In this document: positions 701 to 23,535 of the stretch, piece by piece
Numbering within the stretch: the stretch's first letter is position 1
Layout of the letters: each line of letters starts with the position of its first letter
DNA from: Pelagibacterium halotolerans B2
GTDB lineage: Bacteria; Pseudomonadota; Alphaproteobacteria; Rhizobiales; Devosiaceae
Direction: 5' to 3'
Assembly (NCBI RefSeq): GCF_000230555.1
Contig: NC_016078.1
Location: 3,805,001-3,869,000, forward strand
Length of the DNA: 64,000 nt
Notes under the pieces: model-generated
Told to the model about the DNA's origin: nothing
What the model saw: the letters and a program-made list of their open reading frames with translations, nothing else
Database searches by the model: none
Made by a program: the position numbers and the translations under genes

Positions 701-1459
701 TCAGTCAAGCGATCTCAGAGCCGGAGCGATGCCGCTATGTCCCAGGTGTTGGCTCTTGCGCAAAAGGGTCAGCAACTGATCGGCAGCCATTGTTGAAGGC
801 AAGCCGCCATCGCGAATATTGGAAACGCAGGAGCGTTGGGCGTCGGTGGTGGTTTGCCCGGGTGCCCATGTGAGATACGCCCCCAGGGAATCCGATGCCG
901 ATAAGCCGGGACGTTCTCCGATCAGAACGATCACCGCCCTCGCGCCCATGGCGATGGCAATCTGGTCGCCGATCGCCACCCGTCCATTTCTGACGATGCA
1001 TATGGCCGCGGACATGGTCTCTCCGAGGCGGTCAAGAAGCGTGTGCGTCAGTGGGACCGCATTGGTATTGGCCGCTTCTGCCGACAGGCCGTCCGCTATG
1101 ACGATGACCACATCGCATCGCGCACATGACGCCAGTCTGTCCATGTGAGCCGTATTCAAGGAGCGCCCAAGATCGGGGCGCGTCAGATAGATTGTCCGGG
1201 TCGGCGCCGCGCTCTGCAGTTCGACCGCACGCCGGCCCCGTGTTGCAAGGCCCGCCTGGATGGCCTCCACGTCGAGACTGGAATACACCGCGTCACGGGC
1301 ACGGGCATGATCGATTGCGAAATCGAGCGTGGCCTTGGTCGGCAAGCCGCTTCCCGCGTGACCGAGCGAAACGCGCGCTGCGGTTTGGCGGCGCATTGCC
1401 GACACTTCCATGTCTGGAATGTGACGGCGCGGCAGAACGGTTTTCCTGTTTTCGTTCAC
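701..1459 (-). CDS. eutC: Ethanolamine ammonia-lyase, small subunit (EutC)
   Basis: The 252-residue small subunit of adenosylcobalamin-dependent ethanolamine ammonia-lyase, which with EutB converts ethanolamine (or a related 2-amino alcohol) to aldehyde and ammonia. Family signatures are clear: SLGHAGSGLPTKATLDFAID near the N-terminus, VIVIADGLSAEA in the middle, and ERPGLSASDSLGAYLTW late in the protein. It starts with GTG and overlaps the eutB stop by 4 bp (GTGA), indicating coupled translation. It is the last gene of the five-gene minus-strand operon. No eutA reactivase, microcompartment genes or aldehyde dehydrogenase accompany it in this cluster. Confidence 0.95.
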   Translation of the reverse strand: MNENRKTVLPRRHIPDMEVSAMRRQTAARVSLGHAGSGLPTKATLDFAIDHARARDAVYSSLDVEAIQAGLATRGRRAVELQSAAPTRTIYLTRPDLGRSLNTAHMDRLASCARCDVVIVIADGLSAEAANTNAVPLTHTLLDRLGETMSAAICIVRNGRVAIGDQIAIAMGARAVIVLIGERPGLSASDSLGAYLTWAPGQTTTDAQRSCVSNIRDGGLPSTMAADQLLTLLRKSQHLGHSGIAPALRSLD

Positions 1460-2844
1460 GCTCTGGCTTTCTCACCGAACCGGACGAGGCGGGCTTGAAT
1501 GCGATCGTTTGCCTTGGCCAACCTGCCCTGGCTGTCGAGCAGCCCCATCCGCACCATCCAGGCCTCGAATTCGGGCGCGGGCCTGAGGGATGCCGTCTCG
1601 CGCATGAGCGCGACATCGTGGTGATTGAGGGATTGGTAGTTGAGCATGATATCGTCGGCGCCCGGCACGCTGATCACAAACGTGACCCCGGCCGTCACGA
1701 GCGCGGTGAGCAGAACGTCCATGTCGTTCTGGTCCGCTTCGGCATGATTTGTGTAGCAGACGTCGCACCCCATCGGCAGTCCGAGCAGCTTGCCGCAGAA
1801 ATGGTCTTCCAGGCCGGCGCGGACGATCTGCTTGCCGTCATAGAGATATTCGGGGCCGATGAACCCCACCACCGTGTTGACCAGAAGGCAATCGAACGCT
1901 CGCGCCAGCGCGTACGCCCTCGCCTCCATGGTCTGCTGGTCGACCCCGTGATGCCCGTTCGACGAAAGGGCTGCTCCCTGTCCCGTTTCAAAATACATGC
2001 AGTCCTGACCGATCGTTCCCCGACCGAGCGTTTGGGCGGCGTCCTGCGCTTCGCGCAGAATGGCGAGATCAATGCCGAAAGCGGCATTCGCCGCTTGCGA
2101 TCCGGCGATCGACTGAAAAACGAGATCCACGGGCGCGTTTTGTGCGATCGCCTTGAGCGCGGTGGTGACATGGCCGAGAACGCAGCTTTGCATCGGAATG
2201 GAAAAATGCGTCCGGAGATCATCGAGAAGGCGTGCCGTTCTCACATAATCCTCCAGCCCGTCCGTGGCCGGGTTCACACCCACCACCGCATCGCCGGAAC
2301 CATGGATCAGGCCATCCACGGCGCTGATCGCAATGCCGAGGGGATCGTCGGTTGGGTGGTTGGGCTGGTTTCGCGCCGCCAACCGGCCCTCCAGACCCAA
2401 TGTGGTTCGAAATTTTGTGATCACGCGAATTTTGCGCGACACCGCGATCAAGTCGATGTTGCGCATGAGCTTGCTCACCGCGGCGGCCATTTCCGGCGTC
2501 AGACCGCGCGCCAACCTGGCGATGGCCTCGCCTTCGGCGCCGAGAAGATATTCCCGGAATTCACCCACCGTGAGGCTGGAAACGGGCGCGAAAGCCTGTG
2601 CATCGTGCTGCTGGGCGATCAGGGCGCTGATCTCGTCCTCGACCTCGGGCATCAACTCGGCGGCAAGAAAATCGCGCAAGGAAAGGTCGGCGAGGCAGAT
2701 GCGCGCGGCGACCCGCTCCAGCTCCGATTGGGCCGCGAGCCCGGCCAGTACATCTCCCGAGCGAAGCGGTGTCGCCTTGGCGAGCAGTGTTCGCAGATCA
2801 TCGAAACGCCAGCGTGTTCCACCGACCGAGCAGCTATATCCCAT
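1456..2844 (-). CDS. eutB: Ethanolamine ammonia-lyase, large subunit (EutB)
   Basis: The 462-residue catalytic subunit, near the usual family length. Conserved active-site segments are present: PMQSCVLGHV, LVFQSIAGSQAANAAFGI, YFETGQGAALS (with the substrate-binding Glu) and VPGADDIMLNYQS (with the late active-site Asp). It therefore looks functional. It is preceded by a GAGG ribosome-binding site and lies 21 bp after the RraA-family gene, inside the operon that begins with the nitrilase. Ethanolamine is the default substrate of the family. The neighbours (amidase, aldolase, peptide-type importer) suggest that the amine may instead be released from a larger amide-linked compound. Confidence 0.96.
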   Translation of the reverse strand: MGYSCSVGGTRWRFDDLRTLLAKATPLRSGDVLAGLAAQSELERVAARICLADLSLRDFLAAELMPEVEDEISALIAQQHDAQAFAPVSSLTVGEFREYLLGAEGEAIARLARGLTPEMAAAVSKLMRNIDLIAVSRKIRVITKFRTTLGLEGRLAARNQPNHPTDDPLGIAISAVDGLIHGSGDAVVGVNPATDGLEDYVRTARLLDDLRTHFSIPMQSCVLGHVTTALKAIAQNAPVDLVFQSIAGSQAANAAFGIDLAILREAQDAAQTLGRGTIGQDCMYFETGQGAALSSNGHHGVDQQTMEARAYALARAFDCLLVNTVVGFIGPEYLYDGKQIVRAGLEDHFCGKLLGLPMGCDVCYTNHAEADQNDMDVLLTALVTAGVTFVISVPGADDIMLNYQSLNHHDVALMRETASLRPAPEFEAWMVRMGLLDSQGRLAKANDRIQARLVRFGEKARA

Positions 2845-2865
2845 GCCATACCTCGCAACGGGCGT

Positions 2866-3531
2866 TCACAGCTTTTCCGCAATCATGGCCGATGCGCCGC
2901 TGATCTGACCCAACGGTTCTCCCGCCTCAAGGCGAGCGATCAGGTCCAGTTCGTTGCGCTGCATGGCAAGGGCGCGCTCTGCGACGCTTTCCGCCTGTTC
3001 GGGTGAGAGAACGATGACCCCGCTTTCGTCCGCCACGATAGCATCGCCGGGCATGACCGGAACGCCGCCGCACGCGATCGGCACATTGAATGCGCCCGAC
3101 TGCGCATAAAGTTTCGTCGTTATCGCCGAACGTCCCCGGCTCCAGATTGGAAATTGCCTTTTGACGATCTCGCCCACGTCGGTCACCGGGCCGTCGATCA
3201 CCGCGCCGGCGAAGCCGCATATGGCGGCGGCATTGGTCACGACCCCGCCCCAGCATGCGTGGCGCGTGTCGCCGGACCGATCGATAACGAGAATATCGGT
3301 TGGCCGAAGCGTGGAAACCACGTCGTGCAGCAAGGTCGAATCATTGGCGGCCAGTCGCAGGGTAACGGCCGTGCCGGCGATGCGATGTTTAGCGTCAACT
3401 GCCGCTATGGAACTGTCCATGAAGGCCGAATGTAAAAAGTGCCCAACCGTAGCCGTTTCCACCCGGGTCAGTTTGTCCACAAGCGTTGCGGCAAGGCTTT
3501 GGGGAAGCGGGTTTTTTACGAAATCCTTCAT
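2866..3531 (-). CDS. RraA-family protein (HMG aldolase-like fold), T-D variant
   Basis: A 221-residue protein of the RraA/4-hydroxy-4-methyl-2-oxoglutarate aldolase family, whose members cleave 2-oxo acids or decarboxylate oxaloacetate. The family core is visible: TATVGHFL, ILVIDRSGDTRHACWGG, AGAVIDGPVTD and VMPGDAIVADESGVIVL. The usual Arg of the V-R-D active-site motif is Thr here (GPVTD), so canonical aldolase activity should not be assumed. The plus arm of the same cluster holds a paralogue with the same substitution. The start was set at the ATG that overlaps the preceding aldolase stop as ATGA; the open frame extends further upstream without family similarity. Confidence 0.9.
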   Translation of the reverse strand: MKDFVKNPLPQSLAATLVDKLTRVETATVGHFLHSAFMDSSIAAVDAKHRIAGTAVTLRLAANDSTLLHDVVSTLRPTDILVIDRSGDTRHACWGGVVTNAAAICGFAGAVIDGPVTDVGEIVKRQFPIWSRGRSAITTKLYAQSGAFNVPIACGGVPVMPGDAIVADESGVIVLSPEQAESVAERALAMQRNELDLIARLEAGEPLGQISGASAMIAEKL

Positions 3532-4274
3532 CCTGCCGCTTCTTCCTGCTTGGCTTTTGGAAGCTGGCTCAGAACATTGGCAAATCCCGCGTTGAGCACC
3601 TGGTGCTCGGCGGCTATGACGCGAACGCTGGCACCCTGCCGGGCCGCAAAATCCTGCTCGGGCGGTGTCCATGCCGGGATCCACCACGGCTTGCCGGCCC
3701 GCGCCGCTGCGTCACCGATGCGCGCGATATCGGTCCGGTCGGCTTCGGTGAAGGCGTAGGTGGGTCGTCCCCGGGTCAACGCCAGATCGAATGGGCCGAC
3801 AAAGACGCCATCGACACACTCATGGCCCAAGATCGCCTCGATATCGTCCAGAGCCTCCGCCGTTTCGATCATGGGCAGGCACGCGACCTCGCGATTGCAG
3901 CGCGCAAAATAATCGGGGTCGGGGGGCTGGAACCGGGCTGACCGTCCAGCGGCGTAACTCCGTGTGCCGAGTGGGGGAAATTTGCTCGTGGCAAGCGCCG
4001 CCGCGCAGTCCGCGAGCCGGCCGCAATGGGGGATGACGACGCCATCCACACCCAGATCGAGCGCCCGTTGCACCCAGACCGGCTCGGGGCCTTCGATCTT
4101 GAAAAAGATTTCCAGGCCCATGGCACGCGCCGCAACAACCAGCGCCTCGCGCCGGTCGGGAGAAAAGCCGTTGTGCTCGATATCGCACACGACGCGCTTG
4201 AAGCCCTGATTGGCGCCGATCTCGAGAAAGTCGAGATTGGGCGTGCTTATCCAGAAAGCATAATTGTCCAGCAT
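3528..4274 (-). CDS. HpcH/HpaI-family aldolase
   Basis: A 248-residue class II (metal-dependent) aldolase of the HpcH/HpaI family, which splits or joins 4-hydroxy-2-oxo acids through a pyruvate enolate. Family motifs are in place: CDIEHNGFS (catalytic Asp/His segment), PLGTRSYAAGR (carboxylate-binding Arg), MIETAEAL (metal-binding Glu) and VDGVFVGPFDLAL (metal-binding Asp). It sits 3 bp after the nitrilase gene and overlaps the next gene by 4 bp, so it is in an operon with eutBC. It could process the aldehyde made by EutBC together with pyruvate, but that is inference. Confidence 0.9.
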   Translation of the reverse strand: MLDNYAFWISTPNLDFLEIGANQGFKRVVCDIEHNGFSPDRREALVVAARAMGLEIFFKIEGPEPVWVQRALDLGVDGVVIPHCGRLADCAAALATSKFPPLGTRSYAAGRSARFQPPDPDYFARCNREVACLPMIETAEALDDIEAILGHECVDGVFVGPFDLALTRGRPTYAFTEADRTDIARIGDAAARAGKPWWIPAWTPPEQDFAARQGASVRVIAAEHQVLNAGFANVLSQLPKAKQEEAAG

Positions 4275-4277
4275 CGC

Positions 4278-5090
4278 TCAGCTCAAAACATGGTGGGTAT
4301 TGGAGGGAAGGATGGTGCGGATATGGTCGGCGTAACCGAAATCGATATCGGCGATCACAACACCGGGCTTGGCCGAGGCACGGGCCACAATTGTCCCCCA
4401 GGGATCGATAATCATTGAATTGCCGTAGCTGGCGCGCTCGCCCGCTGCTTCCCGATGCAGCCCGATCTGCCCGGCCGCGATCACCCAGCTCTGGGTTTCG
4501 ATCGCCCGGGCGCGCAGAAGCGTTTCCCAGTGGTCCTTGCCCGTTTCCATGTTGAACGCGGCAGGCACCATGATGACGTCGCACCCATTGCGCATATGGG
4601 TCAGGTAGAGTTCGGAAAAGCGGATATCGTAGCAGATCGAGCAGCCGAAACGTTTGCCCGAGAAGGTAAAATCGACGATCTCGCTGCCCCGGTCGATCGT
4701 ATCGGACTCGCGGAAAATATGACCGCCGGGCGTTTCGACGTCGAACAGATGGATCTTGCGATAACGCGCCAGTTCGGTTCCATCGGGACCGAACACCACG
4801 CTTGTATTGTAGTGCTTGTTGCCGTCCCGTTCGATCATCGAGCCGGTGTGAAACGCAACGCCGTATCGCTTGGCTAGCGCCTGCAACGCCTTGTAGCCCT
4901 CCCCATCGGGAAAGGTCTCGGCCGCGTCCCATTGCTCCTGCTTCAACCCACCGAAAAACGTTCCGTATTCCGGCGCCGCAACGAGATCGACGTTTCGATC
5001 CCCGATATGGGTCTCCAAGAGACCGGCGATCGTTTCAATGTTGGCCGCTTTGTCGTCGCGGGAGTTCAACTGCATGAGCGCAACGCGCAT
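4278..5090 (-). CDS. Carbon-nitrogen hydrolase (nitrilase superfamily, Nit1-like)
   Basis: A 270-residue cytoplasmic amidase/nitrilase-superfamily enzyme. The Glu-Lys-Cys catalytic set is visible: Glu41 in AAPEYG, Lys112 in YRKIHLFD and Cys153 in CSICYDIRF. The KIHLFDVETPGG segment is closest to the Nit1 branch (deaminated glutathione amidase and relatives). Omega-amidase or N-carbamoyl amidase activity cannot be excluded. This is the first gene of the minus-strand operon, 147 bp from the divergent transporter operon. As the promoter-proximal enzyme it probably hydrolyses an amide in the imported substrate or an intermediate. Confidence 0.9.
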   Translation of the reverse strand: MRVALMQLNSRDDKAANIETIAGLLETHIGDRNVDLVAAPEYGTFFGGLKQEQWDAAETFPDGEGYKALQALAKRYGVAFHTGSMIERDGNKHYNTSVVFGPDGTELARYRKIHLFDVETPGGHIFRESDTIDRGSEIVDFTFSGKRFGCSICYDIRFSELYLTHMRNGCDVIMVPAAFNMETGKDHWETLLRARAIETQSWVIAAGQIGLHREAAGERASYGNSMIIDPWGTIVARASAKPGVVIADIDFGYADHIRTILPSNTHHVLS

Positions 5091-5196
5091 CCGAGGCTCT
5101 CCTTTGTGTGTCCCACCGGATCACGCCCGTTCGGCGGTGCCAGTGGTTTTTCATATCGCATGTAAAGCACTATTGACCGATGTCGTGCAATATGAA

Positions 5197-5222
5197 ATGT
5201 TTTTTAAGCATGTAAAAAACAT
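5197..5222. promoter_or_regulatory. Candidate GntR operator 1 in the divergent promoter region
   Basis: A perfect 10-bp inverted repeat: ATGTTTTTTA at 5197-5206 and TAAAAAACAT at 5213-5222, separated by six bases. It lies just upstream of the ribosome-binding site of the substrate-binding-protein gene (start 5238), in the intergenic region shared with the minus-strand operon. The same left arm and spacing recur at 16160-16185 ahead of the GntR gene. Binding there could repress both arms of the cluster. This is inferred from position and symmetry, not from a known motif. Confidence 0.65.
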
Positions 5223-5237
5223 GAGGGGATTTCAGAA

Positions 5238-6785
5238 ATGCTCAAGACACTCACCCGGGGCCTTGCGGTCTCGGTTCTCACTCTGGCCACCGGCTCGATA
5301 GCCTTGGCCGATACGCTCAATGTTCAACTTTCCGCAGACATCCGCAGTTCGCAGCCGGGCGTTAATCGCGATGCCATCACCGACTCCGTAATGCTCAACG
5401 TGGTCGAAGGCCTGGTCGCCGCCGGCGAAGGTGGGGATATCGTTCCCATGCTGGCCAGTGACTGGTCCGTGTCCGAAGAGGGCACGCAATATACGTTCAC
5501 GCTGCGCGACGACGTTGTTTTCCACAATGGAGAGACAATGACGGCGCAGGATGTGGTCTGGAGCTGGGACAAGCTGCTGGCCAATCCCGATTACACCTGC
5601 AACGTCTATTTCGACGGCAGCCAGACCTCGGAGATCGTGAACATCGAAGCGCCCGATCCGGCCACCGTGACGTTCGAGCTCGATCAGCCCGACGCCATGT
5701 TCTTGACCAACATGGCTCAGTCACAATGCGCCGCAACTGCCGTGGTTCATCGCGATTCCTTCAATGAGGATGGAAGCTGGGCCAAGCCGATCGGAACCGG
5801 ACCCTTCGTCTTTGACGAATGGGTGCGCGGCGAAAGCGTTCATCTGGTCAAATTCGAAGACTATGCCGCCACGGGCACCGAGCCCGACGGCTATGGCGGC
5901 TACAAGGAAGCCCTGGTCGATGACGTCAATCTCATCGTCGTGCCGGACAATTCCGCTGCCGTTGCCGGCCTGCAAAGCGGTGACCTCGATATTCTCCCCT
6001 ACCTTCCGCCCAACGAAGCGGCTGAACTTGAGGAGATGGGGTCGTTCAACCTCGTGTCCGAGCCCCATGCCGGTCTTGTGACCATCCTCATCCAGACAGA
6101 GGATCCGGTCATGTCCCACCCGGCGATGCGTCAGGCTTTCGCGGCGGCGCTCGATATCCCCCAGATCGTTGAATCGGTGACCTATGGACTTGGAGTGGCC
6201 AACAATTCGCTCGTGGCCACAGGCTCGGTCTATCACACCGCCCATCATGATCAGGGCTATACCTACGATCCCGCCTCCATTCCGGCCCTGCTCGAAGAAG
6301 CCGGATACGAGGGCGAGCAGATCACCATGCTGACCAACCGCCGCTCGGCGATCAGTTATGACATCGCGGTGATCGCCCAGGCGATGCTTCAGGCGTCGGG
6401 CATCAATGTCGAGATCGAGGTTCTCGAATGGGCCAGCCAGCTCGACCGTTTCCGGTCCGGCAATTACCAGGTCATGGCGTTCAACTATTCTGATCGCGCC
6501 GATCCGGCCCTGGCCTACAACGCGGTGACGGCCTCCAAGGAAGAACGGGCCAATGCCATCTGGGACAATCCCCAGGCCATCGAATTGCTCCAGGCGGTGA
6601 TGGCTGAATCCGATCAGGCCGAGCGTCAGGCCCTGTTTGATCAGCTCCACACCCTCTTTCTCGAGGACATTCCGCTGATCATGTTTGCCAATGGTCTCGA
6701 TGTGGGAGTGTCGGCCGACTACGTCACCGGCTACCGCACCTGGCATGGCTTCGCCCGGCTCTGGGGCGTTGGCCTGACCCGCTAG
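5238..6785 (+). CDS. Peptide-type ABC transporter, substrate-binding protein (family 5)
   Basis: A 515-residue periplasmic binding protein of the dipeptide/oligopeptide/nickel family (SBP_bac_5). Residues 1-25 form a Sec signal peptide ending at LADT. Family landmarks follow: LASDWSVSEEGTQYTFTLRD, VVFHNGETMTAQDV, and PIGTGPFVF near residue 185. It is the first gene of the plus-strand operon, followed by a stem-loop and the two permeases. The bound ligand is unknown; family members take peptides, opines, glutathione, sugars and other amides, which fits the hydrolase-rich neighbourhood. Confidence 0.95.
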   Translation: MLKTLTRGLAVSVLTLATGSIALADTLNVQLSADIRSSQPGVNRDAITDSVMLNVVEGLVAAGEGGDIVPMLASDWSVSEEGTQYTFTLRDDVVFHNGETMTAQDVVWSWDKLLANPDYTCNVYFDGSQTSEIVNIEAPDPATVTFELDQPDAMFLTNMAQSQCAATAVVHRDSFNEDGSWAKPIGTGPFVFDEWVRGESVHLVKFEDYAATGTEPDGYGGYKEALVDDVNLIVVPDNSAAVAGLQSGDLDILPYLPPNEAAELEEMGSFNLVSEPHAGLVTILIQTEDPVMSHPAMRQAFAAALDIPQIVESVTYGLGVANNSLVATGSVYHTAHHDQGYTYDPASIPALLEEAGYEGEQITMLTNRRSAISYDIAVIAQAMLQASGINVEIEVLEWASQLDRFRSGNYQVMAFNYSDRADPALAYNAVTASKEERANAIWDNPQAIELLQAVMAESDQAERQALFDQLHTLFLEDIPLIMFANGLDVGVSADYVTGYRTWHGFARLWGVGLTR

Positions 6786-6800
6786 GCCCGGCATCCGATC

Positions 6801-6830
6801 GTCCCCCGCGTCGAGATCGATGCGGGGGAC
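6801..6830 (+). other. Intercistronic stem-loop after binding-protein gene
   Basis: A perfect 9-bp stem, GTCCCCCGC (6801-6809) with GCGGGGGAC (6822-6830), and a 12-base loop. It lies 15 bp after the stop of the binding-protein gene and about 80 bp before the first permease start. There is no T-run, so it is more likely an mRNA-stabilising or partial-termination element than a full terminator. This arrangement commonly gives more binding protein than permease. Confidence 0.7.
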
Positions 6831-6912
6831 GCGCCACTCGACAATCCCTGGACTCCTTACGCCGCGCTGCCCACCACGCGCCGCCGTTCGGATCGATTGC
6901 CAAGGTTATTCT

Positions 6913-7857
6913 ATGCTCAGATTCATAGTTTCGCGCCTTTTAACCGCGATACCGACACTGCTGATCGTTTCCATCGCGGTCTTTACGCTCGTGCGGCTTA
7001 TCCCGGGCGACCCGGCCAGCCTCATGCTGGGCGATCTCGCCGATGACGCGGCTTATGCTGCCCTGCGTCAGCGCATGGGGCTCGATGAACCCATCGCCGT
7101 GCAGTTCTTCATCTGGCTGGGCAATCTGTTTCAAGGCGATCTGGGCGTATCGGTGACCACGGGTCAGGCGGTCCTGCCGCTGATCCTTGGCCGCTTTGCG
7201 ACCAGCGCCACGATGGTGCTGAGCGCGGTCGGCCTGGCGGTTCTAATCGCCGTCCCGCTTGGGATGGTTGCGGCGTGGCGTCAGAACGGAAAATGGGATC
7301 TGGCGATCGTGGCCATGTCCACGCTGCTCGTCTCCATTCCCACCTTCTGGCTCGGGTTGATGATCCTGCTGGCGTTCGGGCTCAAGCTGGGCTGGCTGCC
7401 GGTGCTTGGCTACGTCTCGGTCGCGCGCGACCCGGTGGCGGGCATCCTTTATCTGGTCATGCCTGTCGCGACCCTTGTGCTCCATGAGGTCGGCATTATC
7501 GTCCGCATGGCACGCGCTTCCACACTCGATGTGCTGCGCCTCGACTACATCACTCACGCCCGTGCCAAGGGGCTCAGTGAAACCGCCATCTTGTTCAATC
7601 ACGCGGCGCGCAATGCCTTTGGTCCCACATGGACGCTGATCGGGTTGATCCTTGGCAATTTGCTGGGCGGAATTGCCGTGGTCGAAACCGTCTTCACCAT
7701 TCCCGGTCTGGGCCGGCTGATCGTGGAATCGATATACGCCCGCGACTACGCGGTTCTTCAAGGCTGCTTGCTGTTCGTGGCCGTGACCTATGTGCTGGTC
7801 AACCTCGTCGTCGACCTCCTCTATCCCTTTTTCGATCCTCGGGTGGCCGCAGAATGA
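6913..7857 (+). CDS. Peptide-type ABC transporter permease (DppB-like)
   Basis: A 314-residue inner-membrane permease of the DppB/OppB family with an N-terminal helix (LRFIVSRLLTAIPTLLIVSI) and about six membrane segments. Family signatures include RLIPGDPASLMLG near residue 35, the EAA-loop-like stretch DYITHARAKGLSE around residue 215, and ETVFTIPGLGRLIVESIYARDY near the C-terminus. The ATG at 6913 was chosen because it starts directly at the first membrane helix; the frame is open further upstream without similarity. It overlaps the next permease by 4 bp (ATGA). It pairs with that permease and the ATPase as one importer. Confidence 0.94.
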   Translation: MLRFIVSRLLTAIPTLLIVSIAVFTLVRLIPGDPASLMLGDLADDAAYAALRQRMGLDEPIAVQFFIWLGNLFQGDLGVSVTTGQAVLPLILGRFATSATMVLSAVGLAVLIAVPLGMVAAWRQNGKWDLAIVAMSTLLVSIPTFWLGLMILLAFGLKLGWLPVLGYVSVARDPVAGILYLVMPVATLVLHEVGIIVRMARASTLDVLRLDYITHARAKGLSETAILFNHAARNAFGPTWTLIGLILGNLLGGIAVVETVFTIPGLGRLIVESIYARDYAVLQGCLLFVAVTYVLVNLVVDLLYPFFDPRVAAE

Positions 7858-8669: not shown

Positions 8670-10324
8670 TGAGCGGTACTGAAACCTTGCTCAGCGTCGA
8701 CAATCTTACGCTGCGGGTCGCCAGCCCAGGCGGGCCCGAGATCGTTCGAAACGCGAGCCTTACCGTGGCACCCGGTGAAATCGTGGGTATCGTAGGAGAA
8801 TCGGGCTCTGGCAAGACCATGCTCGCCCGGTCCCTGATGGGTCTGCAGCCGCCGGTCATCGAGCGGACCCACGGAAGGGTTCATTTTCGCGGGCAGTCGA
8901 TCCTGGACATGCCGCCTGCGCTATTGCGCCGGTTGCGGGGCGCACAGATGGGCATGGTGTTCCAGGAGCCCATGACGTCGCTGAACCCCTCGATGACCAT
9001 TGGAAGGCAACTCGAAGAGCCTTTGCGCGTCCACACCAAACTTGACGCGTCAGAACGCCGGCGCAAGGCGATCGAAATTCTCAATCGGGTCGGCATGCCC
9101 GATCCCGAAGCAGGACTTAAGGCCTATCCGCACGAGTTCTCCGGCGGCATGCGCCAGCGCATTATGCTGGCCTCGGCCATGCTCCTGCGCCCGGCGCTTC
9201 TCATTGCCGACGAACCCACGACGGCGCTTGACGCCTTGATCCAGCGCGACGTGCTCGAACTCATGCTCGAGCTGACGCAGGACGATGGCACCGCCCTTCT
9301 CATGATCAGCCACGACCTGCCCATGGTGGCCCGCTACTGCCAGCGCGTGATCGTCATGCGACAGGGTGAAATCGTCGAATCCGGATCGACCGAAGAGATT
9401 TTGCGGGCCCCTGCGCACCCCTATACCCGCGATCTGTTGCAGGCCATGCCGGTGCGTGGCCCCAATCGCACGTTCTCCGAGAAAACAGCGCCCGTCATTT
9501 CGGTCAGGGGTATCGAAGTGGTTTACCGCTCCAAGACCGGTATTCTGGCACCCGCCCGAACCAAACATGCGCTCAAGGGGATCGATCTTGACGTCAGGGC
9601 AGGGGAGGTCGTCGCGGTTGTTGGCAGCTCTGGCTCGGGCAAAACGACGCTGGGGCGGGCCATAGCGGGGCTGATCGCCCCATCGTCTGGGCAATTGTCG
9701 TTTCGCGGGCAACCGGTATCCAAAGGCTCGTCCGCCTACAGGGACTACCGCCTCAACTGCCAGATGATTTTCCAGGACCCCTTCGGTTCGCTCGATCCCC
9801 GCATGACGATTGGCGCATTGGTCGCCGAACCGCTGCGGCATGAACAAGGCGTCAACCGTGCCCAGGCTGCACGCCGCGTGGCAGAAATCCTTTCCGAAGT
9901 CGGGTTGGACGCAAATTTCGTCAAACGCTACCCGCACGAATTGTCGGGCGGGCAGCGCCAGCGTGTTGCCATCGCTCGGGCCATCATCGGTCGTCCCGAT
10001 TTCGTCATCGCCGACGAGGCGGTCTCGGCGCTTGATGTCACCGTGCGCGCCCAGGTGCTCGAACTGCTCGCTTCTCTCCAGCGCCGCTACAATTTCTCCT
10101 GCCTGTTCATCAGCCACGACCTTGCCGTCGTCGAGCAGCTCGCCGATCGTGTTGTCGTTATGGACGGCGGGGAAATCGTCGAGCAGGGTCCACGCGACGC
10201 GATCTTTGATCGGCCTGCGTCCGACTACACGCGTGCTCTGCTATCGGCCATCCCGACGCTGGTGCGCACCGAACACGGTGTCGCCATGAGCTGGCGATTC
10301 CCCCGGGAGGCCGCAAAGCCGTGA
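8669..10324 (+). CDS. Fused peptide-type ABC transporter ATPase (DppD-DppF type)
   Basis: A 551-residue cytoplasmic ATPase with two complete nucleotide-binding domains in one chain. The first half has Walker A GESGSGKT near residue 50, signature FSGGMRQR and Walker B LLIADEPTTALD. The second has GSSGSGKT near residue 320, LSGGQRQR and FVIADEAVSALD. An oligopeptide/dipeptide C-terminal segment (HPYTRDLLQAMP) follows the first domain. Such fusions replace separate DppD and DppF subunits. It begins at the ATG overlapping the permease stop, and its end overlaps the GTG of the next gene by 4 bp. Confidence 0.95.
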   Translation: MSGTETLLSVDNLTLRVASPGGPEIVRNASLTVAPGEIVGIVGESGSGKTMLARSLMGLQPPVIERTHGRVHFRGQSILDMPPALLRRLRGAQMGMVFQEPMTSLNPSMTIGRQLEEPLRVHTKLDASERRRKAIEILNRVGMPDPEAGLKAYPHEFSGGMRQRIMLASAMLLRPALLIADEPTTALDALIQRDVLELMLELTQDDGTALLMISHDLPMVARYCQRVIVMRQGEIVESGSTEEILRAPAHPYTRDLLQAMPVRGPNRTFSEKTAPVISVRGIEVVYRSKTGILAPARTKHALKGIDLDVRAGEVVAVVGSSGSGKTTLGRAIAGLIAPSSGQLSFRGQPVSKGSSAYRDYRLNCQMIFQDPFGSLDPRMTIGALVAEPLRHEQGVNRAQAARRVAEILSEVGLDANFVKRYPHELSGGQRQRVAIARAIIGRPDFVIADEAVSALDVTVRAQVLELLASLQRRYNFSCLFISHDLAVVEQLADRVVVMDGGEIVEQGPRDAIFDRPASDYTRALLSAIPTLVRTEHGVAMSWRFPREAAKP

Positions 10325-11880
10325 CTATGCATAAAGACGGTCTGCTCAGGGCCACCCCACAATCGCGGGGCGTGGATCCGCACGCGATTGCGACCATGCT
10401 CGAAACGATCGAACGCGAAGGCATCGAACTGCACAGCCTCCTCATCTGGAGTCGAAATGCTCTGGTGAGTGAAACCTACTGGTTGCCCTTTACTGCGGAC
10501 CGGCTGCACATGATGCATTCGGTCACCAAGAGCTTCACCTCCATGGCGGTGGGACTTGCTGTCGGTGACGGTCTTCTTGAGATCGACGATGCGGTGCTGA
10601 AATTTTTCCCCGAGCACCGGGCCATCACCCAGTCGCCGCGCCTCGAGCGCATGAGGGTGCGTCATTTGCTGACCATGACCAGCGGACATGCCCAGGGCAT
10701 TTCGGGCGGCGCATGGCGACGGCTCCGGACAAGCTGGGTGGCCGATTTCCTGGCCCAGCCCATGGCCCATGAACCCGGTGAAGTCTTCGTCTATGACAGT
10801 GCTGCCAGCTACATGCTCTCAGCGATCGTGCAAAAGGTGACGGGCCGTCCCATCCACGATTACCTGGCCGAGCGCATCTTCACGCCCATGAACATGTCGG
10901 ACGATATGAGATGGGATCTGAGCCCCGAAGGCATCAATTCGGGCGGCAACGGCTTGCGTTGCCGTACCTCCGATCTTCTCAAGCTCGGCATCCTGCATCT
11001 TCAGGGCGGCATCTGGAATGATAAGGTCCTGCTCTCACCCGATTGGGTTGAAATGGCCGTCAGTGCCCAGATCCGCGACGTGGTGCTCGGCGTTTTCACC
11101 GGCGAAGCCTATCTCGGACCCGATGAAGCCGGCGAAGGTATCCCCGCCGTCCGGCGCGAGGGCTATGGCTTCCAATGGTGGCGCGGCCCCTATGAAAGCT
11201 ATTCGGCCAACGGTCTGTTCGGGCAATATTGCATCGTGCTGCCCGAGCAGCAGACCGTTGTCGCTTTCACCGCAGGCATTGCCGATGACGACAGGCGCGT
11301 TCACGAGTTGATCTTCGAGATTTTGCGCCCGGCGCTTGGTGCTGTCCCGATCGAAAGCCCTGCCGTTCACCCCGAGCGCAGGCCGGCACGCTTCAAGATT
11401 CAACCCGGCCCCGAAACCGCGGATGCAGCGCCAGGGTGCTGGCACGGCCAATACAGCATGGAGGCCAACCAACAGCAGGTCCAAGGGATCAGGCTCGCCG
11501 TCGGCAGTGCGCGACAGAGCATAGAGTTTACCCTCGTCGACCATCGCGGTACGCATGTGGTGGAGGCCGGGTTCGGGCACTGGGTCGAAGGCATCACGAC
11601 CATCAGCGGCGCGCGCCTGCATCATTCCTACGAGCCCGACGGAGGGCTGCGTGTCCTCGCTTGTGCCCGCTGGATAGAGGGTGACGACGGCTGGATGTGC
11701 CTGGAAATGGACTGGCTCTTTATCGAGACCGCTTTTCGCGACACTGTGCGGTGCTGGCTCAAGGGGGGCGTTCTGCGCGTCGAACGCGAGGTCAATGTCA
11801 ATTCCGCTGAACGCGTGCTTCCGCCTCTCAAGGGCAGCGCCGTCGACCCTGCGAGCCCGGAAGGGAACGCCGCGCCATGA
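10321..11880 (+). CDS. Serine hydrolase of the beta-lactamase (class C/PBP-like) family
   Basis: A 519-residue serine hydrolase with a penicillin-binding-protein/beta-lactamase fold. The nucleophile motif is S67-V-T-K70 (HSVTKSF), followed by a Tyr-centred motif YDS at 158-160. A roughly 150-residue C-terminal extension from about residue 365 resembles the extra domain of some esterase or D-aminopeptidase members. No signal peptide is seen, so it probably acts in the cytoplasm on an imported ester or amide rather than in antibiotic resistance. It starts with GTG overlapping the ATPase stop (an ATG at 10327 is possible) and ends in an ATGA overlap with the next gene. Confidence 0.88.
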   Translation: MTMHKDGLLRATPQSRGVDPHAIATMLETIEREGIELHSLLIWSRNALVSETYWLPFTADRLHMMHSVTKSFTSMAVGLAVGDGLLEIDDAVLKFFPEHRAITQSPRLERMRVRHLLTMTSGHAQGISGGAWRRLRTSWVADFLAQPMAHEPGEVFVYDSAASYMLSAIVQKVTGRPIHDYLAERIFTPMNMSDDMRWDLSPEGINSGGNGLRCRTSDLLKLGILHLQGGIWNDKVLLSPDWVEMAVSAQIRDVVLGVFTGEAYLGPDEAGEGIPAVRREGYGFQWWRGPYESYSANGLFGQYCIVLPEQQTVVAFTAGIADDDRRVHELIFEILRPALGAVPIESPAVHPERRPARFKIQPGPETADAAPGCWHGQYSMEANQQQVQGIRLAVGSARQSIEFTLVDHRGTHVVEAGFGHWVEGITTISGARLHHSYEPDGGLRVLACARWIEGDDGWMCLEMDWLFIETAFRDTVRCWLKGGVLRVEREVNVNSAERVLPPLKGSAVDPASPEGNAAP

Positions 11881-12701
11881 GCAAGCATGCCCTGGCGGCC
11901 ATGACGCAGGCCGAGTTTCGCGAGCGGATCGCGCGGCCCGGTGTCATCCTCTTGCCGCTCGGTTCACAGGAACCTCAAGGTCCACACGCCCCGATGGGAG
12001 ACTATCGGCTCGCCGAACGGCTTGCCGTGATGAGCGCGGAGGCCGGCGACGGGCTGGCTGCTCCCGCGCTGGCCTTCGGACATGCCGATTTTTTCCGCGG
12101 CTTTGCGGGCGGTATGCAATTGCGGCCGCAGACCTTTGCCGCCATGCTCGAAGACATGATCGGCTCGTTTCTCGATCACGACCTGAACCACCTTCTGATT
12201 TTCAACGGCCACAGCGCCAACGCACCCCTGATCGATCAGGTGACGCGCGGCATACGGCGTCGGACCGGCATTGCCGTTCCGTCCCTCAACATCTGGAAAG
12301 CCATTCCCCCTGAGCTTTGGCGCGACCTTTACGGCGAGGACGCCAGTTCCGTGCGCGGGCATGGCGGCGAACCGCTGACCTCGGTGGCTACCTATCTGTT
12401 CCCCGACGAGATGCGGCCCGACCTGGTTGCGACCAGCGCGCCGCGGGCTCGAGCGTTCGGGGTTCCCATTCGCGGCATTTCGGGCGTCGACTTCCGTGGT
12501 CTGCCCCTGCAACTTCCCATCGATGCCCATGAGGTCGACGCCAACGCCATGCTGGGCGGTTCGCCACACATGGCCAGCGCCGCTCGCGGAAAAGCGATCT
12601 GCGATCACATCGTCCATCACACCGCCCGATTGATGGGTCAACTCCTTGCCCACGATCCAAGGAAAATGGTGTCCGATTTGCCCACCGAGAACCAATTATG
12701 A
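11877..12701 (+). CDS. Creatininase-family amidohydrolase with altered metal site
   Basis: A 274-residue protein of the creatininase family, which hydrolyses cyclic or linear amides with two metal ions. The core segment is PLGSQEPQGPHAPMGDY near residues 27-43, with Glu32, His37 and Asp42, and NGHSANAP around His112. Creatininase has Glu-x-His in the first motif; here it is Glu-Pro-Gln, so one usual metal-ligand His is Gln. The residue after NGH also differs. It is translationally coupled on both sides (ATGA overlaps). The substrate is unknown, and the altered ligands make a changed or reduced metal site possible. Confidence 0.85.
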   Translation: MSKHALAAMTQAEFRERIARPGVILLPLGSQEPQGPHAPMGDYRLAERLAVMSAEAGDGLAAPALAFGHADFFRGFAGGMQLRPQTFAAMLEDMIGSFLDHDLNHLLIFNGHSANAPLIDQVTRGIRRRTGIAVPSLNIWKAIPPELWRDLYGEDASSVRGHGGEPLTSVATYLFPDEMRPDLVATSAPRARAFGVPIRGISGVDFRGLPLQLPIDAHEVDANAMLGGSPHMASAARGKAICDHIVHHTARLMGQLLAHDPRKMVSDLPTENQL

Positions 12702-13375
12702 CCAACTATCGTATCGAGCCGCTACCGACCCCCGCCGACCCAAAATTGCTCGCCGAACTCGAGCGCATCGAAACGGCCACCATCGGCCATATGCGCCATA
12801 CCGGCTTCATGCGCCGTACCATTCAGGCCCTGGCTCCCGATCAGCCGACACGGGCCGGCCTTGCCGTTACGCTGGCCATCCCGGGGTTCTGCTCGACGCT
12901 GGTCCACTATGCGGTCAGCAAGATCAGGCCCGGCGACATTCTGGTCATCGACCGGCTCGGCGATGACCGGCACGCCTGTGTCGGCGGGGCCGTTGCCCGC
13001 GCGGCGAAAATGGCGGGCGCCGTTGGCATAGTCGTCGATGGCCCGGTCACCGATCGGGTTGAGATCCTCGCCGAAGGTCTGCCGGTCTGGTGTAGCGGCA
13101 TCTCCCCGATCACCACCCGGCGCGCCAACCAGGGCGGCACCTTTAACCGTCCCATTTCCTGCGGCAACGTTCCGGTTCTGCCCGGTGATATCGTCGTGGC
13201 TGACGCATCCGGCGTGGTCGTCCTGCCGGCCGATGAGGCCGAACACACAGCCCGCGAGGCCGCCGCGCGCGAATTGCGGGTCGCCAGAACCATGGCCCGC
13301 CTCCAAGCCGGCGAGAAACTGGGCGACATCACCGGGGTTGTGCAGCAGATCGAAAATTTGTCGGCAAAGGACTGA
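12698..13375 (+). CDS. RraA-family protein (second copy in cluster), T-D variant
   Basis: A 225-residue RraA/HMG-aldolase-fold protein, clearly paralogous to the minus-arm copy at 2866-3531. Shared segments are ETATIGHMRHTGFM, ILVIDRLGDDRHACVGG, GIVVDGPVTD and VLPGDIVVADASGVVVLP. It has Thr in place of the usual active-site Arg before the metal-binding Asp (VTD rather than VRD), exactly as in the other copy. Since RraA-fold enzymes form trimers or hexamers, the two could assemble together. It overlaps the creatininase gene by 4 bp. Confidence 0.9.
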   Translation: MTNYRIEPLPTPADPKLLAELERIETATIGHMRHTGFMRRTIQALAPDQPTRAGLAVTLAIPGFCSTLVHYAVSKIRPGDILVIDRLGDDRHACVGGAVARAAKMAGAVGIVVDGPVTDRVEILAEGLPVWCSGISPITTRRANQGGTFNRPISCGNVPVLPGDIVVADASGVVVLPADEAEHTAREAAARELRVARTMARLQAGEKLGDITGVVQQIENLSAKD

Positions 13376-13377
13376 CA

Positions 13378-14280
13378 GTGATGACCATCTCATTGGACCG
13401 CGATGCGTTTCTCGTGCCCATGCCGGAAGATATTCCGGATGTCCTCAGCGTCACGTTACCGGGTGCACCGCTGATCCCTTTGGTTTTCGACAGTCCGCAC
13501 AGCGGCACCGATATTCCGGCCGATTTCAAGCCGGCAGTCAGTGCGGATATGGTGCGTATTTCCGCAGACACCCATGTGGACGATCTGTTCTCATCCGCGC
13601 CGCGTCATGGCGCGCCTTTGCTGCGTGCGCATTTTCCGCGCAGCTTTCTGGATGCAAACCGGTCCCTCGCCGATATGGATCGAGACATGCTGGCCGGCGA
13701 GTGGCCGCACCACACACGCGACAGCCCGACTGCCAGACGCGGCATGGGACTGATCTGGCGAAATGCCTGGGGCGAAACCCCGATGTATGCCGCACCGATG
13801 CCTGTTGGCGAAGCTGAGGCGCGCATCCGGAAATACTGGGTGCCGTATCAGGCGGCCCTGCGTCAGCTTCTCGACGGTGCGTTCGCGCAGTTCCGCTGTG
13901 TCTGGCACATCAATTGCCATTCCATGACTGATATCGGCCATGCCATGTCATCGGATGGCGACGGCGCACGGCGCGCCGATATCTGTATCGGCGACATGTA
14001 TGGAGCATCGGCGGGCGAAGAGTTCACCGCATTGTTGCGCGACTTCCTGGAGAGCGAAGGGCTTTCGGTCGCCATGAACAAGCCCTTCCGTGGCGCCGAG
14101 TTGACCGAAGCCTACGCCAACCCGTCGATCGATCGCCATTCGGTTCAGTTCGAGATCAATCGACGCCTCTACATGAACGAAACCACGCGGGAAATCAGCC
14201 AGGATTACCCCGCCCTGAAAGGCGCGATGGACCGCCTCGTCGCTCATCTGGCCGATTACACCCAAGGAAAGCTCGTCTGA
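13378..14280 (+). CDS. N-formylglutamate amidohydrolase-family protein
   Basis: A 300-residue zinc-dependent amidohydrolase of the HutG/N-formylglutamate amidohydrolase family, which removes N-acyl groups from acidic amino acids. Family landmarks are VFDSPHSGTDIP near residue 40, ISADTHVDDLF, HFPRSFLDANR, and HINCHSM around residue 180. The start is GTG at 13378 or the adjacent ATG at 13381. It lies 2 bp after the RraA gene and its TGA shares a base with the next ATG. No other histidine-degradation gene is near, so the substrate is more likely an N-formyl or N-acyl compound specific to this cluster. Confidence 0.88.
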   Translation: MMTISLDRDAFLVPMPEDIPDVLSVTLPGAPLIPLVFDSPHSGTDIPADFKPAVSADMVRISADTHVDDLFSSAPRHGAPLLRAHFPRSFLDANRSLADMDRDMLAGEWPHHTRDSPTARRGMGLIWRNAWGETPMYAAPMPVGEAEARIRKYWVPYQAALRQLLDGAFAQFRCVWHINCHSMTDIGHAMSSDGDGARRADICIGDMYGASAGEEFTALLRDFLESEGLSVAMNKPFRGAELTEAYANPSIDRHSVQFEINRRLYMNETTREISQDYPALKGAMDRLVAHLADYTQGKLV

Positions 14281-15098
14281 TGCCCAAGTTGAATTTCTAC
14301 CGTCTCGACCACAGCGCCATGTTCGCATCCCAGTCAGACCCCCGCTTTCACTATTGCACCTACATGCCCAGGAGCTATGAACCTCAAGGTGACAAGCGCT
14401 ATCCGCTTGTCGTTCTCGTTCACCATAGCCTGCGCAACGCCGCCGGCCTGCGCGATGAATTCTCGGATTTTGCCGAGGAGAATCAGTGCGCATTGCTGGC
14501 TCCGCTCTTTCCATGCGGTATTGGCGGGCCCGACGATTTCAACAATTACAAGCATCTGCGCCATGGCGGCGTCGCCTATGACGAAGTGCTCCTGAGCATG
14601 ATCGAGGAAGTTGCATCGGTCTTTCGTATCGAGACGGAGCGCTTCCTGATGCACGGCTTTTCAGGCGGTGGACAGTTCTCGATGCGTTTCTATCTGCGCC
14701 ATCCGGATCGGCTGCGCGGCGTCTCCATCGCGGCACCGGGCACGGTCACCCTTCCGGGCGACCCGCGCAGCTGGTGGGTCGGCACCGGCGACATGAAGGA
14801 AGCGCTCGGCGCACCGCTGGACCTCGAGGCCCTGCGTCAGGTTCCCGTGCAACTCGTGATCGGAGCCGACGATACCGAGAGTGAGGGCGTCATGGTCAGC
14901 CCGGGTTCCAGTTTCTGGCGCGAGGATTCCAACGATGCCGGCCACGATCGGGTGGCCCGGCTCGATGCTTTCCAGAAAGCGATTGAAGGTCTGAGCATCA
15001 CGGTGGAACGGGTGGATGTGCCGGGCGTTGGGCATGTCGGCGTCCACATCCAGAAGCCGGTGAAGGCGTTTTTCTCCCGGTTGCTCACGACCGCCTAG
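14280..15098 (+). CDS. Alpha/beta hydrolase (esterase-like)
   Basis: A 272-residue alpha/beta-hydrolase resembling polyhydroxybutyrate depolymerase/esterase-D-type enzymes. The oxyanion strand is YPLVVLVHHSLRN near residue 45, the nucleophile elbow GFSGGG places Ser128, and a His near residue 250 (VGHVGVH) could complete the triad. No signal peptide is present, so it acts in the cytoplasm. It is the last gene of the plus-strand operon and its start overlaps the preceding stop (TGATG). A CCGAT/ATCGG inverted repeat lies just downstream, before the convergent GntR gene. Confidence 0.85.
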   Translation: MPKLNFYRLDHSAMFASQSDPRFHYCTYMPRSYEPQGDKRYPLVVLVHHSLRNAAGLRDEFSDFAEENQCALLAPLFPCGIGGPDDFNNYKHLRHGGVAYDEVLLSMIEEVASVFRIETERFLMHGFSGGGQFSMRFYLRHPDRLRGVSIAAPGTVTLPGDPRSWWVGTGDMKEALGAPLDLEALRQVPVQLVIGADDTESEGVMVSPGSSFWREDSNDAGHDRVARLDAFQKAIEGLSITVERVDVPGVGHVGVHIQKPVKAFFSRLLTTA

Positions 15099-16111: not shown

Positions 16112-16159
16112 GATCAACCTCTTCCCATGCCTTCAATCCATAATGGAATCTATATATGC

Positions 16160-17580: not shown

Positions 17581-17668
17581 ACTCATCCTCCACCCCGGCC
17601 TGTCTCGCACCGCTATGCTGATCTGAAACGTGACTATTGTCACTCAACGAATGTTTTTGATATCCGTA

Positions 17669-17682
17669 TATGAGATTTCATA
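17669..17682. promoter_or_regulatory. Inverted repeat in isochorismatase/IclR divergent region
   Basis: TATGA and TCATA flank a four-base centre immediately upstream of the IclR ribosome-binding site, within the 115-bp divergent promoter region. An autoregulatory IclR site here would be typical of the family. The element is short, so this is a weak call. Confidence 0.35.
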
Positions 17683-17695
17683 CAAGGAGGTTGGC

Positions 17696-18442: not shown

Positions 18443-18466
18443 CGATTATCAGGTCGCCGCAGTTCA

Positions 18467-18499
18467 CAAAATTCTCAAATATGGAGATTTTGTTTGACA
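18467..18499 (+). promoter_or_regulatory. Inverted repeat and -35-like box upstream of aldehyde dehydrogenase operon
   Basis: CAAAAT..CTC (18467-18476) and GAG-ATTTTG (18484-18492) form an imperfect inverted repeat, followed at once by TTGACA (18494-18499), a perfect -35 box. The -10 is not clear. The position directly upstream of a promoter suggests an IclR binding site, but a terminator for the iclR gene is an alternative. Confidence 0.45.
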
Positions 18500-18555
18500 G
18501 CGAAAGGTCGCTCTCGTAACCGTGTCGCCAAGCTAACGACACGGGAGAGGGGCTG

Positions 18556-19998: not shown

Positions 19999-20037
19999 CC
20001 GGCGACGGTCCTTCTTTTATCTGTTTCGGGTTTGACT

Positions 20038-22436: not shown

Positions 22437-22476
22437 AGCCACTATTAAAATTCAGAACTTCAAAAGGAGGAAAACC

Positions 22477-23460: not shown

Positions 23461-23476
23461 CGTCTGAAAAAAAGCC

Positions 23477-23513: not shown

Positions 23514-23535
23514 ACGTTCGCACAGGGAGGTTACG

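What the first reader, a model, noticed from the sequence alone, without database searches (positions are those of the whole stretch)
701..15098. Ethanolamine ammonia-lyase embedded in an amide-catabolic cluster: possible undescribed pathway
EutBC is co-transcribed with a Nit1-like amidase, an HpcH/HpaI aldolase and an RraA protein, and faces a peptide-type importer with four further hydrolases. No eutA, eutE, microcompartment or ethanolamine permease genes are present. The set reads as uptake of an amide- or ester-linked amino-alcohol compound, stepwise hydrolysis, B12-dependent deamination and aldol chemistry on the aldehyde.
Basis: inference. Interest (0 to 1): 0.78.

Follow-up and report, generated by a model that had tools for sequence, protein, structure and literature searches.

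The report
Ethanolamine-releasing catabolic island with swappable ending
This stretch of an alphaproteobacterium carries an importer and a set of bond-cutting enzymes that most likely take in some larger compound and release ethanolamine from it, with a vitamin-B12 enzyme as an exchangeable last step; the compound itself is still unknown.

Summary
Importer, hydrolases, nitrilase and HpcH form a patchy alphaproteobacterial island. Eleven other copies were examined; none has eutBC in the stretch held.

EutBC is still probably no passenger. A congener (G012, no EutB found) has the same island and, beside nit-hpcH-rraA, the enzymes of the described gamma-glutamyl-ethanolamide pathway without their ethanolamine TRAP transporter. 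EutBC also sits with the module in three other genomes, at four places on the EutB tree counting the window; one of those three has an ethanolamine-permease-like gene between. The host has no TIGR00908 permease above cut-off (EutH and EtoX types not searched genome-wide) and has the B12 adenosyltransferase. Best reading: an imported ethanolamine-bearing compound is hydrolysed inside, and one of several interchangeable modules removes the ethanolamine.

'Aldol chemistry on the aldehyde' is not supported: HpcH and RraA occur without EutBC and lack the usual arginine (K and T instead). The parent compound is unidentified; a siderophore is possible in relatives, but this host has no TonB receptor.

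The parts
701..1459 (-). eutC, ethanolamine ammonia-lyase small subunit
   Evidence: Pfam PF05985 271 bits, NCBIfam equivalog NF003971 met
1456..2844 (-). eutB, ethanolamine ammonia-lyase large subunit; all five substrate-contact residues kept (residue list recalled)
   Evidence: Pfam PF06751 684 bits; alignment to E. coli K-12 EutB
2866..3531 (-). RraA-like protein 1 with T-D in place of the aldolase R-D motif
   Evidence: Pfam PF03737; alignment to 3noj; residue counts
3528..4274 (-). HpcH/HpaI-like protein with K59 in place of the usual Arg; His, Glu and Asp kept
   Evidence: Pfam PF03328; alignment to 1dxe
4278..5090 (-). nitrilase-superfamily amidase, Nit1/Nit2-like, E-K-C triad present
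   Evidence: Pfam PF00795, NCBIfam, PDB matches
5091..5237 (.). divergent promoter region between the two arms
   Evidence: sequence
5238..6785 (+). family-5 solute-binding protein of an Opp/Dpp-type importer
   Evidence: Pfam PF00496 282 bits; best solved relative AgaA 6hlx, 147 bits
6913..7857 (+). permease 1
   Evidence: Pfam PF00528
7854..8669 (+). permease 2
   Evidence: Pfam PF00528
8669..10324 (+). fused double ATPase of the importer
   Evidence: two ABC_tran stretches; start read from sequence
10327..11880 (+). beta-lactamase-fold serine hydrolase with SxxK and a conserved Tyr
   Evidence: Pfam PF00144
11877..12701 (+). creatininase-family amidohydrolase
   Evidence: Pfam PF02633 149 bits
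12698..13375 (+).
   Evidence: Pfam PF03737
13381..14280 (+). N-formylglutamate-amidohydrolase-family protein (possible GTG start at 13378)
   Evidence: Pfam PF05013 224 bits; 2q7s
14280..15098 (+). alpha/beta-hydrolase-type esterase, GFSGGG motif
   Evidence: no Pfam match; NCBIfam PHA-depolymerase-like 43 bits, below cut-off
15191..16117 (-). GntR-FCD regulator with two GntR-type matches
   Evidence: Pfam GntR (two stretches) and FCD; orthologues at 54-61% in 7 of the 11 other islands as held

Best explanation
The locus is a patchily spread alphaproteobacterial catabolic island. The Opp-type importer brings in a compound that carries ethanolamine in amide and/or ester linkage. The nitrilase-family amidase, the beta-lactamase-fold hydrolase, the creatininase- and formylglutamate-amidohydrolase-family enzymes and the esterase cut it in steps inside the cell. 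HpcH- and RraA-like proteins, which lack the usual arginines, process the acid part, probably not as classical pyruvate aldolases. The freed ethanolamine goes to a module that differs between genomes: EutBC here (acetaldehyde + NH3, adenosylcobalamin-dependent), the gamma-glutamyl-ethanolamide enzymes in a congener, and possibly a class III aminotransferase with aldehyde dehydrogenase elsewhere. Shown: gene content, conservation, recurrence and exchange of modules, catalytic residues. Inferred: the parent compound, order of steps, substrate of every hydrolase, co-regulation.
For: (1) Tight operon and divergent arms. (2) The two-arm island recurs in 11 other places examined: L040+L212, L042, L044, L045, L047, L057, L069, L120-L123; further plasmid records were listed but not fetched. 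(3) In congener G012, in which no EutB was found, one 42-kb contig holds the whole island and, beside TRAP-nit-hpcH-rraA-LysR, a cassette FGase - glutamine-synthetase-like - aldehyde dehydrogenase - Fe-alcohol dehydrogenase. It is 49/74/71/77% identical to the operon on a Qingshengfaniella plasmid whose gene order (also Ruegeria) is that of the Phaeobacter ethanolamine operon (PMC10132767, passages). The ethanolamine TRAP transporter is missing from the cassette, and the TRAP beside nit is not close to it (at best about 22-24% over parts). (4) EutBC lies near nit/HpcH/RraA in L046 and L055 (2 of 80 nit loci; about 0.025 expected from a rough density), and in L182 one operon reads esterase-HpcH-ABC importer-EutBC-RraA-PepSY-Nit; G012 holds a like cassette without EutBC. 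(5) The four module-linked EutBs need 4 label changes on the tree, at least 2 forced by well supported branches. (6) EutB contact residues all kept. (7) No TIGR00908 permease above cut-off; adenosyltransferase present.
Against: EutBC is absent around the 11 other two-arm islands, and in 11 of the 15 genomes or records searched (4 of those 11 are single plasmids). In one search, 23 of 33 tabulated stretches have none of the three amine modules. Seen from EutB, only 1 of 39 neighbourhoods chosen by EutB (L182) holds a module homologue (5 of the 39 stretches are shorter than 14 kb). In L055 an ethanolamine-permease-like gene (213 bits, below cut-off) stands between nit and EutB, so free ethanolamine may be the substrate there. 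The L045 and L069 genomes, and plasmid pAspH13-3a, hold EutBC far from their island. EutH- and EtoX-type transporters and the gamma-glutamyl pathway were not searched in the host genome; ethanolamine can also diffuse in. G012 is a MAG, 92% complete. No ligand, induction or enzyme data. The aminotransferase substrate is unknown.
Confidence: 0.52

Rival explanations
1. EutBC is an independent ethanolamine lyase that landed behind an unrelated amide-catabolic operon; it uses free ethanolamine that diffuses in or enters by an unsearched transporter, and its neighbours do something else.
For: The 11 other islands examined lack EutBC nearby. 38 of 39 EutB-chosen neighbourhoods lack the module. EutBC is absent from the 12 other genomes of the genus, so it is a recent arrival or much lost. 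It forms the 3' end of the operon. In L055 an ethanolamine-permease-like gene stands beside EutBC. A. baumannii EutBC works alone (PMC9426561, passages).
Against: A non-homologous ethanolamine cassette occupies the same island in a congener. Association recurs in L046, L055 and L182, with EutBC mid-operon in L182.
Confidence: 0.28
2. The parent compound is a siderophore built with ethanolamine (composition of vibrioferrin and achromobactin recalled: citrate, ethanolamine, an amino acid, 2-oxoglutarate as a lactam). Nit1-like, creatininase-like and esterase enzymes would open the 2-oxoglutaramate, lactam and ester bonds.
For: L182: a TonB receptor just upstream of the EutBC operon, a PepSY_TM gene beyond it, and a PepSY_TM-Fer2 gene inside the operon. 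L138: PepSY_TM and a TonB receptor next to the beta-lactamase-fold gene, esterase and Opp importer. L044: PepSY-, FecBCDE- and TonB-like genes, named by eye. Nearest NCBIfam model of nit is deaminated glutathione amidase, whose substrate (recalled) is an N-substituted 2-oxoglutaramate.
Against: The window's genome has no TonB plug domain. One search matched no such genes near the other islands, but its reach is short: even the L138 and L182 receptors did not match each other. The flanks of L182 hold further TonB- and PepSY-like genes, so the pair there is not distinctive. One full-text search with vibrioferrin, ethanolamine and catabolism showed no report of this among the 20 listed of 2,631.
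Confidence: 0.08
3. EutBC acts on a larger or different amino alcohol produced by the hydrolases, not on ethanolamine.
For: The window EutB has the longest end branch on the tree (0.59) and departs at 6 of 146 near-invariant columns.
Against: All five contact residues are unchanged; the congener's replacement cassette is the described ethanolamine one.
Confidence: 0.08
4. One reading: HpcH and RraA carry out aldol chemistry on the acetaldehyde made by EutBC.
For: All three lie in one operon; class II aldolases can use acetaldehyde (recalled).
Against: HpcH and RraA persist in islands without EutBC. The arginine is replaced by K in 24 of 25 HpcH matches at 40% identity or more, and by T in 37 of 39 RraA matches.
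Confidence: 0.04

Closest known systems
Eto pathway: gamma-glutamyl-ethanolamide route of Phaeobacter MED193, C. salexigens and A. tumefaciens C58 (PMC10132767, passages), and S. coelicolor GlnA4 (PMC6529630, passages)
   Same: Its four enzymes, including a formylglutamate-amidohydrolase-family one, are found inside the same island in congener G012.
   Different: Not seen in the first 20 kb of the window (GS-like query); the described operon imports free ethanolamine by EtoXVW, which is missing from the G012 cassette.
EutBC without microcompartment (A. baumannii, PMC9426561, passages)
   Same: EutBC without EutA, EutE or shell genes nearby.
   Different: Here EutBC ends an operon with an amidase, HpcH and RraA, and faces a peptide-type importer with hydrolases.
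Canonical eut metabolosome operon (E. coli K-12)
   Same: EutBC.
   Different: No EutA, permease or shell counterpart seen among the 49 window ORFs given to Pfam.
Class III aminotransferase version of the island (L122 annotated; L069)
   Same: Same importer arm and an HpcH-like protein.
   Different: Aminotransferase and a succinate-semialdehyde-dehydrogenase-like enzyme instead of EutBC.

Membership tests
Ethanolamine ammonia-lyase EutBC | both subunits over curated cut-offs | tested here: met
Ethanolamine ammonia-lyase EutBC | R160, Q162, N193, E287, D362 (E. coli numbering; list recalled) | tested here: met
   all 41 EutB rows agree with E. coli K-12 (the window is counted twice in its 42)
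Ethanolamine ammonia-lyase EutBC | activity on ethanolamine with adenosylcobalamin | not testable with these tools
   adenosyltransferase gene present
Eut metabolosome | shell genes, EutA, EutE | tested here: inconclusive
   none among 49 window ORFs scanned; not searched genome-wide
Ethanolamine permease system (TIGR00908) | permease over cut-off | tested here: not met
   98.6 against 381.75 bits, whole genome; EutH and EtoX types not searched
Gamma-glutamyl-ethanolamide (Eto) pathway | GS-like, ADH, ALDH and amidohydrolase set | tested here: inconclusive
   no GS-like match in the first 20 kb of the window; present in congener G012; rest of own genome not searched
HpcH/HpaI class II aldolase | His, metal Glu and Asp (roles recalled) | tested here: met
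HpcH/HpaI class II aldolase | substrate-binding Arg (role recalled) | tested here: not met
   K59; K in 24 of 25 matches at 40% identity or more, R in 19 of 21 below 40%
RraA-type HMG/CHA aldolase | R-D motif (role recalled) | tested here: not met
   T-D in both RraA copies; T in 37 of 39 matches, A in 2, R in none
Deaminated glutathione amidase (Nit1) | E-K-C triad (recalled) | tested here: met
Deaminated glutathione amidase (Nit1) | NCBIfam equivalog cut-off | tested here: not met
   164 against 500 bits
Siderophore utilisation locus | TonB receptor available to the host | tested here: not met
   no plug-domain match in the genome

The most novel reading that the evidence does not exclude
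The island encodes an undescribed pathway that dismantles a bound form of ethanolamine, a natural product and in some relatives perhaps an ethanolamine-containing siderophore, and in which EutBC and the gamma-glutamyl-ethanolamide enzymes are non-homologous, interchangeable final modules working on ethanolamine made inside the cell. The K-type HpcH and T-type RraA would be enzymes of unknown reaction.
Probability: 0.43. Interest if true: 0.68.

Novelty: new variant of a known kind. Interest (0 to 1): 0.5.

Why it matters
Ethanolamine use is usually studied as uptake of the free compound. This locus and its relatives point to a supply of bound ethanolamine that bacteria import whole, and to two unrelated ethanolamine pathways filling the same slot. 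The conserved but unassigned hydrolases, HpcH and RraA variants would give new enzyme functions once the substrate is known, and the short conserved gene set makes the substrate question directly testable.

Tried and rejected
Siderophore reading: taken up after L182, L138 and L044 showed TonB/PepSY genes, then lowered because the host genome has no TonB plug domain, the L182 flanks hold more such genes, and one search found none near the other islands (a search of short reach). The TRAP beside nit as an ethanolamine transporter: rejected, at best about 22-24% identity to EtoX over parts. The Fbp-type importer upstream of the window (L143) as the L182 importer: rejected, permease and binding protein do not match. 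A shared operator: ATAATACA occurs in 5 of 6 divergent promoters, not in the window. 16S for naming the host: no match. Phylogenetic grouping of the module-linked EutBs: none, 4 changes. Literature: (creatininase, RraA, N-formylglutamate combinations) found nothing; one search found one unrelated paper; nothing on point in the listings.

Weak points: gene calls in loci without annotation come from a home-made caller, and several names in them (TRAP parts, FecBCDE, PepSY of L044, HyuAB, the HpcH of L182) rest on eye or BLAST; only the proteins were checked with profile libraries. The chance estimate uses the class-wide EutB density (which counts the window's own genome) for 80 loci not all of that class. 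The plasmid collection was searched on purpose, so four of 11 islands being on plasmids is no rate.
Full report
OBSERVATION. The gene list is right. The minus-strand genes eutC, eutB, rraA1, hpcH and nit are separated by -4, +21, -4 and +3 bases; the plus-strand genes after the first permease by -4 to +5, with 127 bases behind the binding-protein gene. EutB is the only copy in the genome. Whole-genome searches found no TIGR00908 ethanolamine permease over cut-off, a cobalamin adenosyltransferase, and no TonB plug domain. EutA, EutH, EtoX and shell genes were not searched genome-wide; none of the 49 window ORFs given to Pfam is EutA, EutE or a shell protein.

WHAT IS CONSERVED. Anchored on nit in named genomes (80 loci), on the importer, beta-lactamase-fold and HpcH proteins in plasmids and on a congener, the two-arm island (nit/HpcH arm against binding protein, permeases, ATPase, beta-lactamase-fold, creatininase, RraA, FGase, esterase, with GntR) was examined in 11 other places: L040+L212 (congener G012), L042 Xinfangfangia, L044 Paracoccus, L045 Salipiger, L047 Oceanicola (contig ends behind hpcH), L057 and L069 Agrobacterium (plus arm cut by the stretch held), L120 Qingshengfaniella plasmid, L121 Shinella plasmid, L122 and L123 Agrobacterium plasmids. 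Further records, such as Rhizobium SSA_523 and pAspH13-3a, were listed but their islands not fetched. Not all copies have every gene: L123 has no nit match, rraA1 was matched in the nit arm only in L040, L042 and L121, and in L042 no creatininase was matched. None has EutB in the stretch held. The beta-lactamase-fold protein at E<=1e-60 is absent from 396 other sampled genomes of the order and present in 1 of 384 other sampled genomes of the class (G012 was not in the order sample): the island is rare and patchy. A second form, TRAP-nit-hpcH-rraA, occurs in L040, L041, L043 and L046. More distant nit-RraA-HpcH sets in Azorhizobium, Xanthobacter and Aureimonas stand with a Pot-type importer and hydantoinase/oxoprolinase-like genes (names by eye).

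WHERE EUTBC COMES IN. Of 15 module-bearing genomes or records searched, 4 have EutB: beside the module in L046 and L055, elsewhere in the genomes of L045 and L069. Eleven have none; four of those eleven are single plasmids. Plasmid pAspH13-3a has the island near 85-93 kb and EutBC near 531 kb. Seen from EutB, 39 neighbourhoods chosen by EutB (from; 5 shorter than 14 kb) were scanned and one, L182, has module homologues. L182 is telling: esterase, HpcH, an Fbp-type importer, EutB, EutC, RraA (58% to rraA1), a PepSY-ferredoxin protein, Nit (36%), an alpha/beta hydrolase and a GntR regulator run in one direction, several overlapping. A like cassette without EutBC lies at the left end of the congener's island: binding protein 37%, permease 43%, ATPase 53%, HpcH 40%, with Nit and esterase relatives. 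Two of 80 nit loci hold EutB, against about 0.025 expected from the class-wide density; this is a rough figure. In one of the two, L055, an ethanolamine-permease-like gene (213 bits, below cut-off) stands between nit and EutB, which fits use of free ethanolamine there. The tree of 41 EutBs puts the four module-linked ones in four places, at least two of them forced by well supported branches. So EutBC joined this kind of gene set more than once.

THE EXCHANGE ARGUMENT. Congener G012 has the island but no EutB was found in it (a MAG, 92% complete). L040 is G012: the overlapping stretches are identical. Between its TRAP-nit-hpcH-rraA-LysR genes and its GntR gene stand an FGase-family protein, a glutamine-synthetase-like protein, an aldehyde dehydrogenase and an iron alcohol dehydrogenase. 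They are 49, 74, 71 and 77% identical to a Qingshengfaniella plasmid operon with the order RpiR, FGase, TRAP, GS-like, ALDH, Fe-ADH, as in Ruegeria. That is the order listed for the Phaeobacter ethanolamine operon, whose EtoX was shown to bind ethanolamine (PMC10132767, passages); the S. coelicolor route is predicted to end with a formylglutamate-amidohydrolase-family enzyme (PMC6529630, passages). In G012 the ethanolamine transporter is missing from the cassette, and the TRAP beside nit is not EtoX. In the window EutBC likewise has no permease beside it. Two unrelated ethanolamine modules, each without its importer at hand, in one island in two members of a genus, suggest that ethanolamine arises inside the cell from something the island imports. 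In Agrobacterium L057, L069 and L122 and in G453 (L206+L138), a class III aminotransferase and an aldehyde dehydrogenase stand there instead; in G361 (L208+L142) the aminotransferase alone was matched. Its substrate is not known, and the L069 genome also has EutBC elsewhere, so this part is weaker. Of 33 stretches tabulated, 4 have EutB, 5 the aminotransferase and 1 the GS-like gene, never two together; 23 have none of the three.

ENZYMES. EutB keeps all five contact residues (list recalled) but departs at 6 of 146 near-invariant columns. Nit has E-K-C; the beta-lactamase-fold protein has S-x-x-K and a conserved Tyr; the esterase has GFSGGG (roles recalled). HpcH keeps His, Glu and Asp but has K for the usual Arg: K in 24 of 25 matches at 40% identity or more, R in 19 of 21 below. 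RraA has T for the Arg of R-D in 37 of 39 matches (both RraA types of a locus counted) and A in two. This marks HpcH and RraA of this module as own subfamilies with an unassigned reaction, and speaks against plain pyruvate aldol chemistry.

WHAT THE SUBSTRATE MAY BE. Open. TonB and PepSY genes beside L182 and L138, and by eye L044, raise a siderophore with an ethanolamine unit; the host's lack of any TonB plug domain speaks against it here, and the L182 flanks hold other such genes. The acid part may be a 2-oxo or hydroxy acid amide, since the nearest NCBIfam model of Nit is deaminated glutathione amidase, but its cut-off is far from met.

VERDICT. The pathway idea is partly supported: EutBC is probably an exchangeable end module of a conserved island. 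No description was found in the listings, which search open-licence papers only.

Noticed in passing
L129 and L203 (Agrobacterium pAspH13-3a and B6): In L129 EutBC follows an Opp-type importer, a DeoR regulator, a Zn-dependent hydrolase, two kinase genes (one named choline/ethanolamine kinase family) and a histidinol-phosphatase gene; L203 looks alike: another importer-plus-hydrolase set ending in EutBC.
   Followed up: partly
L130 (Azospirillum brasilense plasmid p3): TRAP transporter, dipeptidase, FAD oxidoreductase and EutBC in one run; its EutB falls in the same 10-row clade as the window's.
   Followed up: partly
window 34161-43520: A second possible catabolic set: RraA-like, DHDPS-family, MFS, LysR, then another family-5 binding protein with two permeases and a double ATPase.
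   Followed up: no
window 16876-25358: Isochorismatase-like hydrolase, IclR, aldehyde dehydrogenase, FAD monooxygenase-like, SDR and TRAP genes, probably a separate catabolic set; whether the aldehyde dehydrogenase takes acetaldehyde is unknown.
   Followed up: no
window 15191-16117: The GntR regulator has two GntR-type matches before its FCD domain, which seems unusual.
   Followed up: no
window about 516-621: A palindromic intergenic element lies just behind eutC, perhaps a repeated element (seen).
   Followed up: no
L143 315-8754: Within 10 kb upstream of the window lie genes that look like TctC, TctB and TctA, an RpiR-type regulator and an iron-type ABC importer (names by eye; binding-protein domain by Pfam).
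   Followed up: partly
L121, L122, L123: A sucrase/ferredoxin-like protein stands between the esterase and GntR genes in these three Rhizobiaceae islands and was not matched in the other stretches held.
   Followed up: partly
L177 (G472): EutB with an in-frame TAG in one genome, possibly a decaying copy.
   Followed up: no
P0003: A named full-length relative of the window's HpcH, 78% identical, is from Pelagibacterium halotolerans; its neighbourhood was not available.
   Followed up: no
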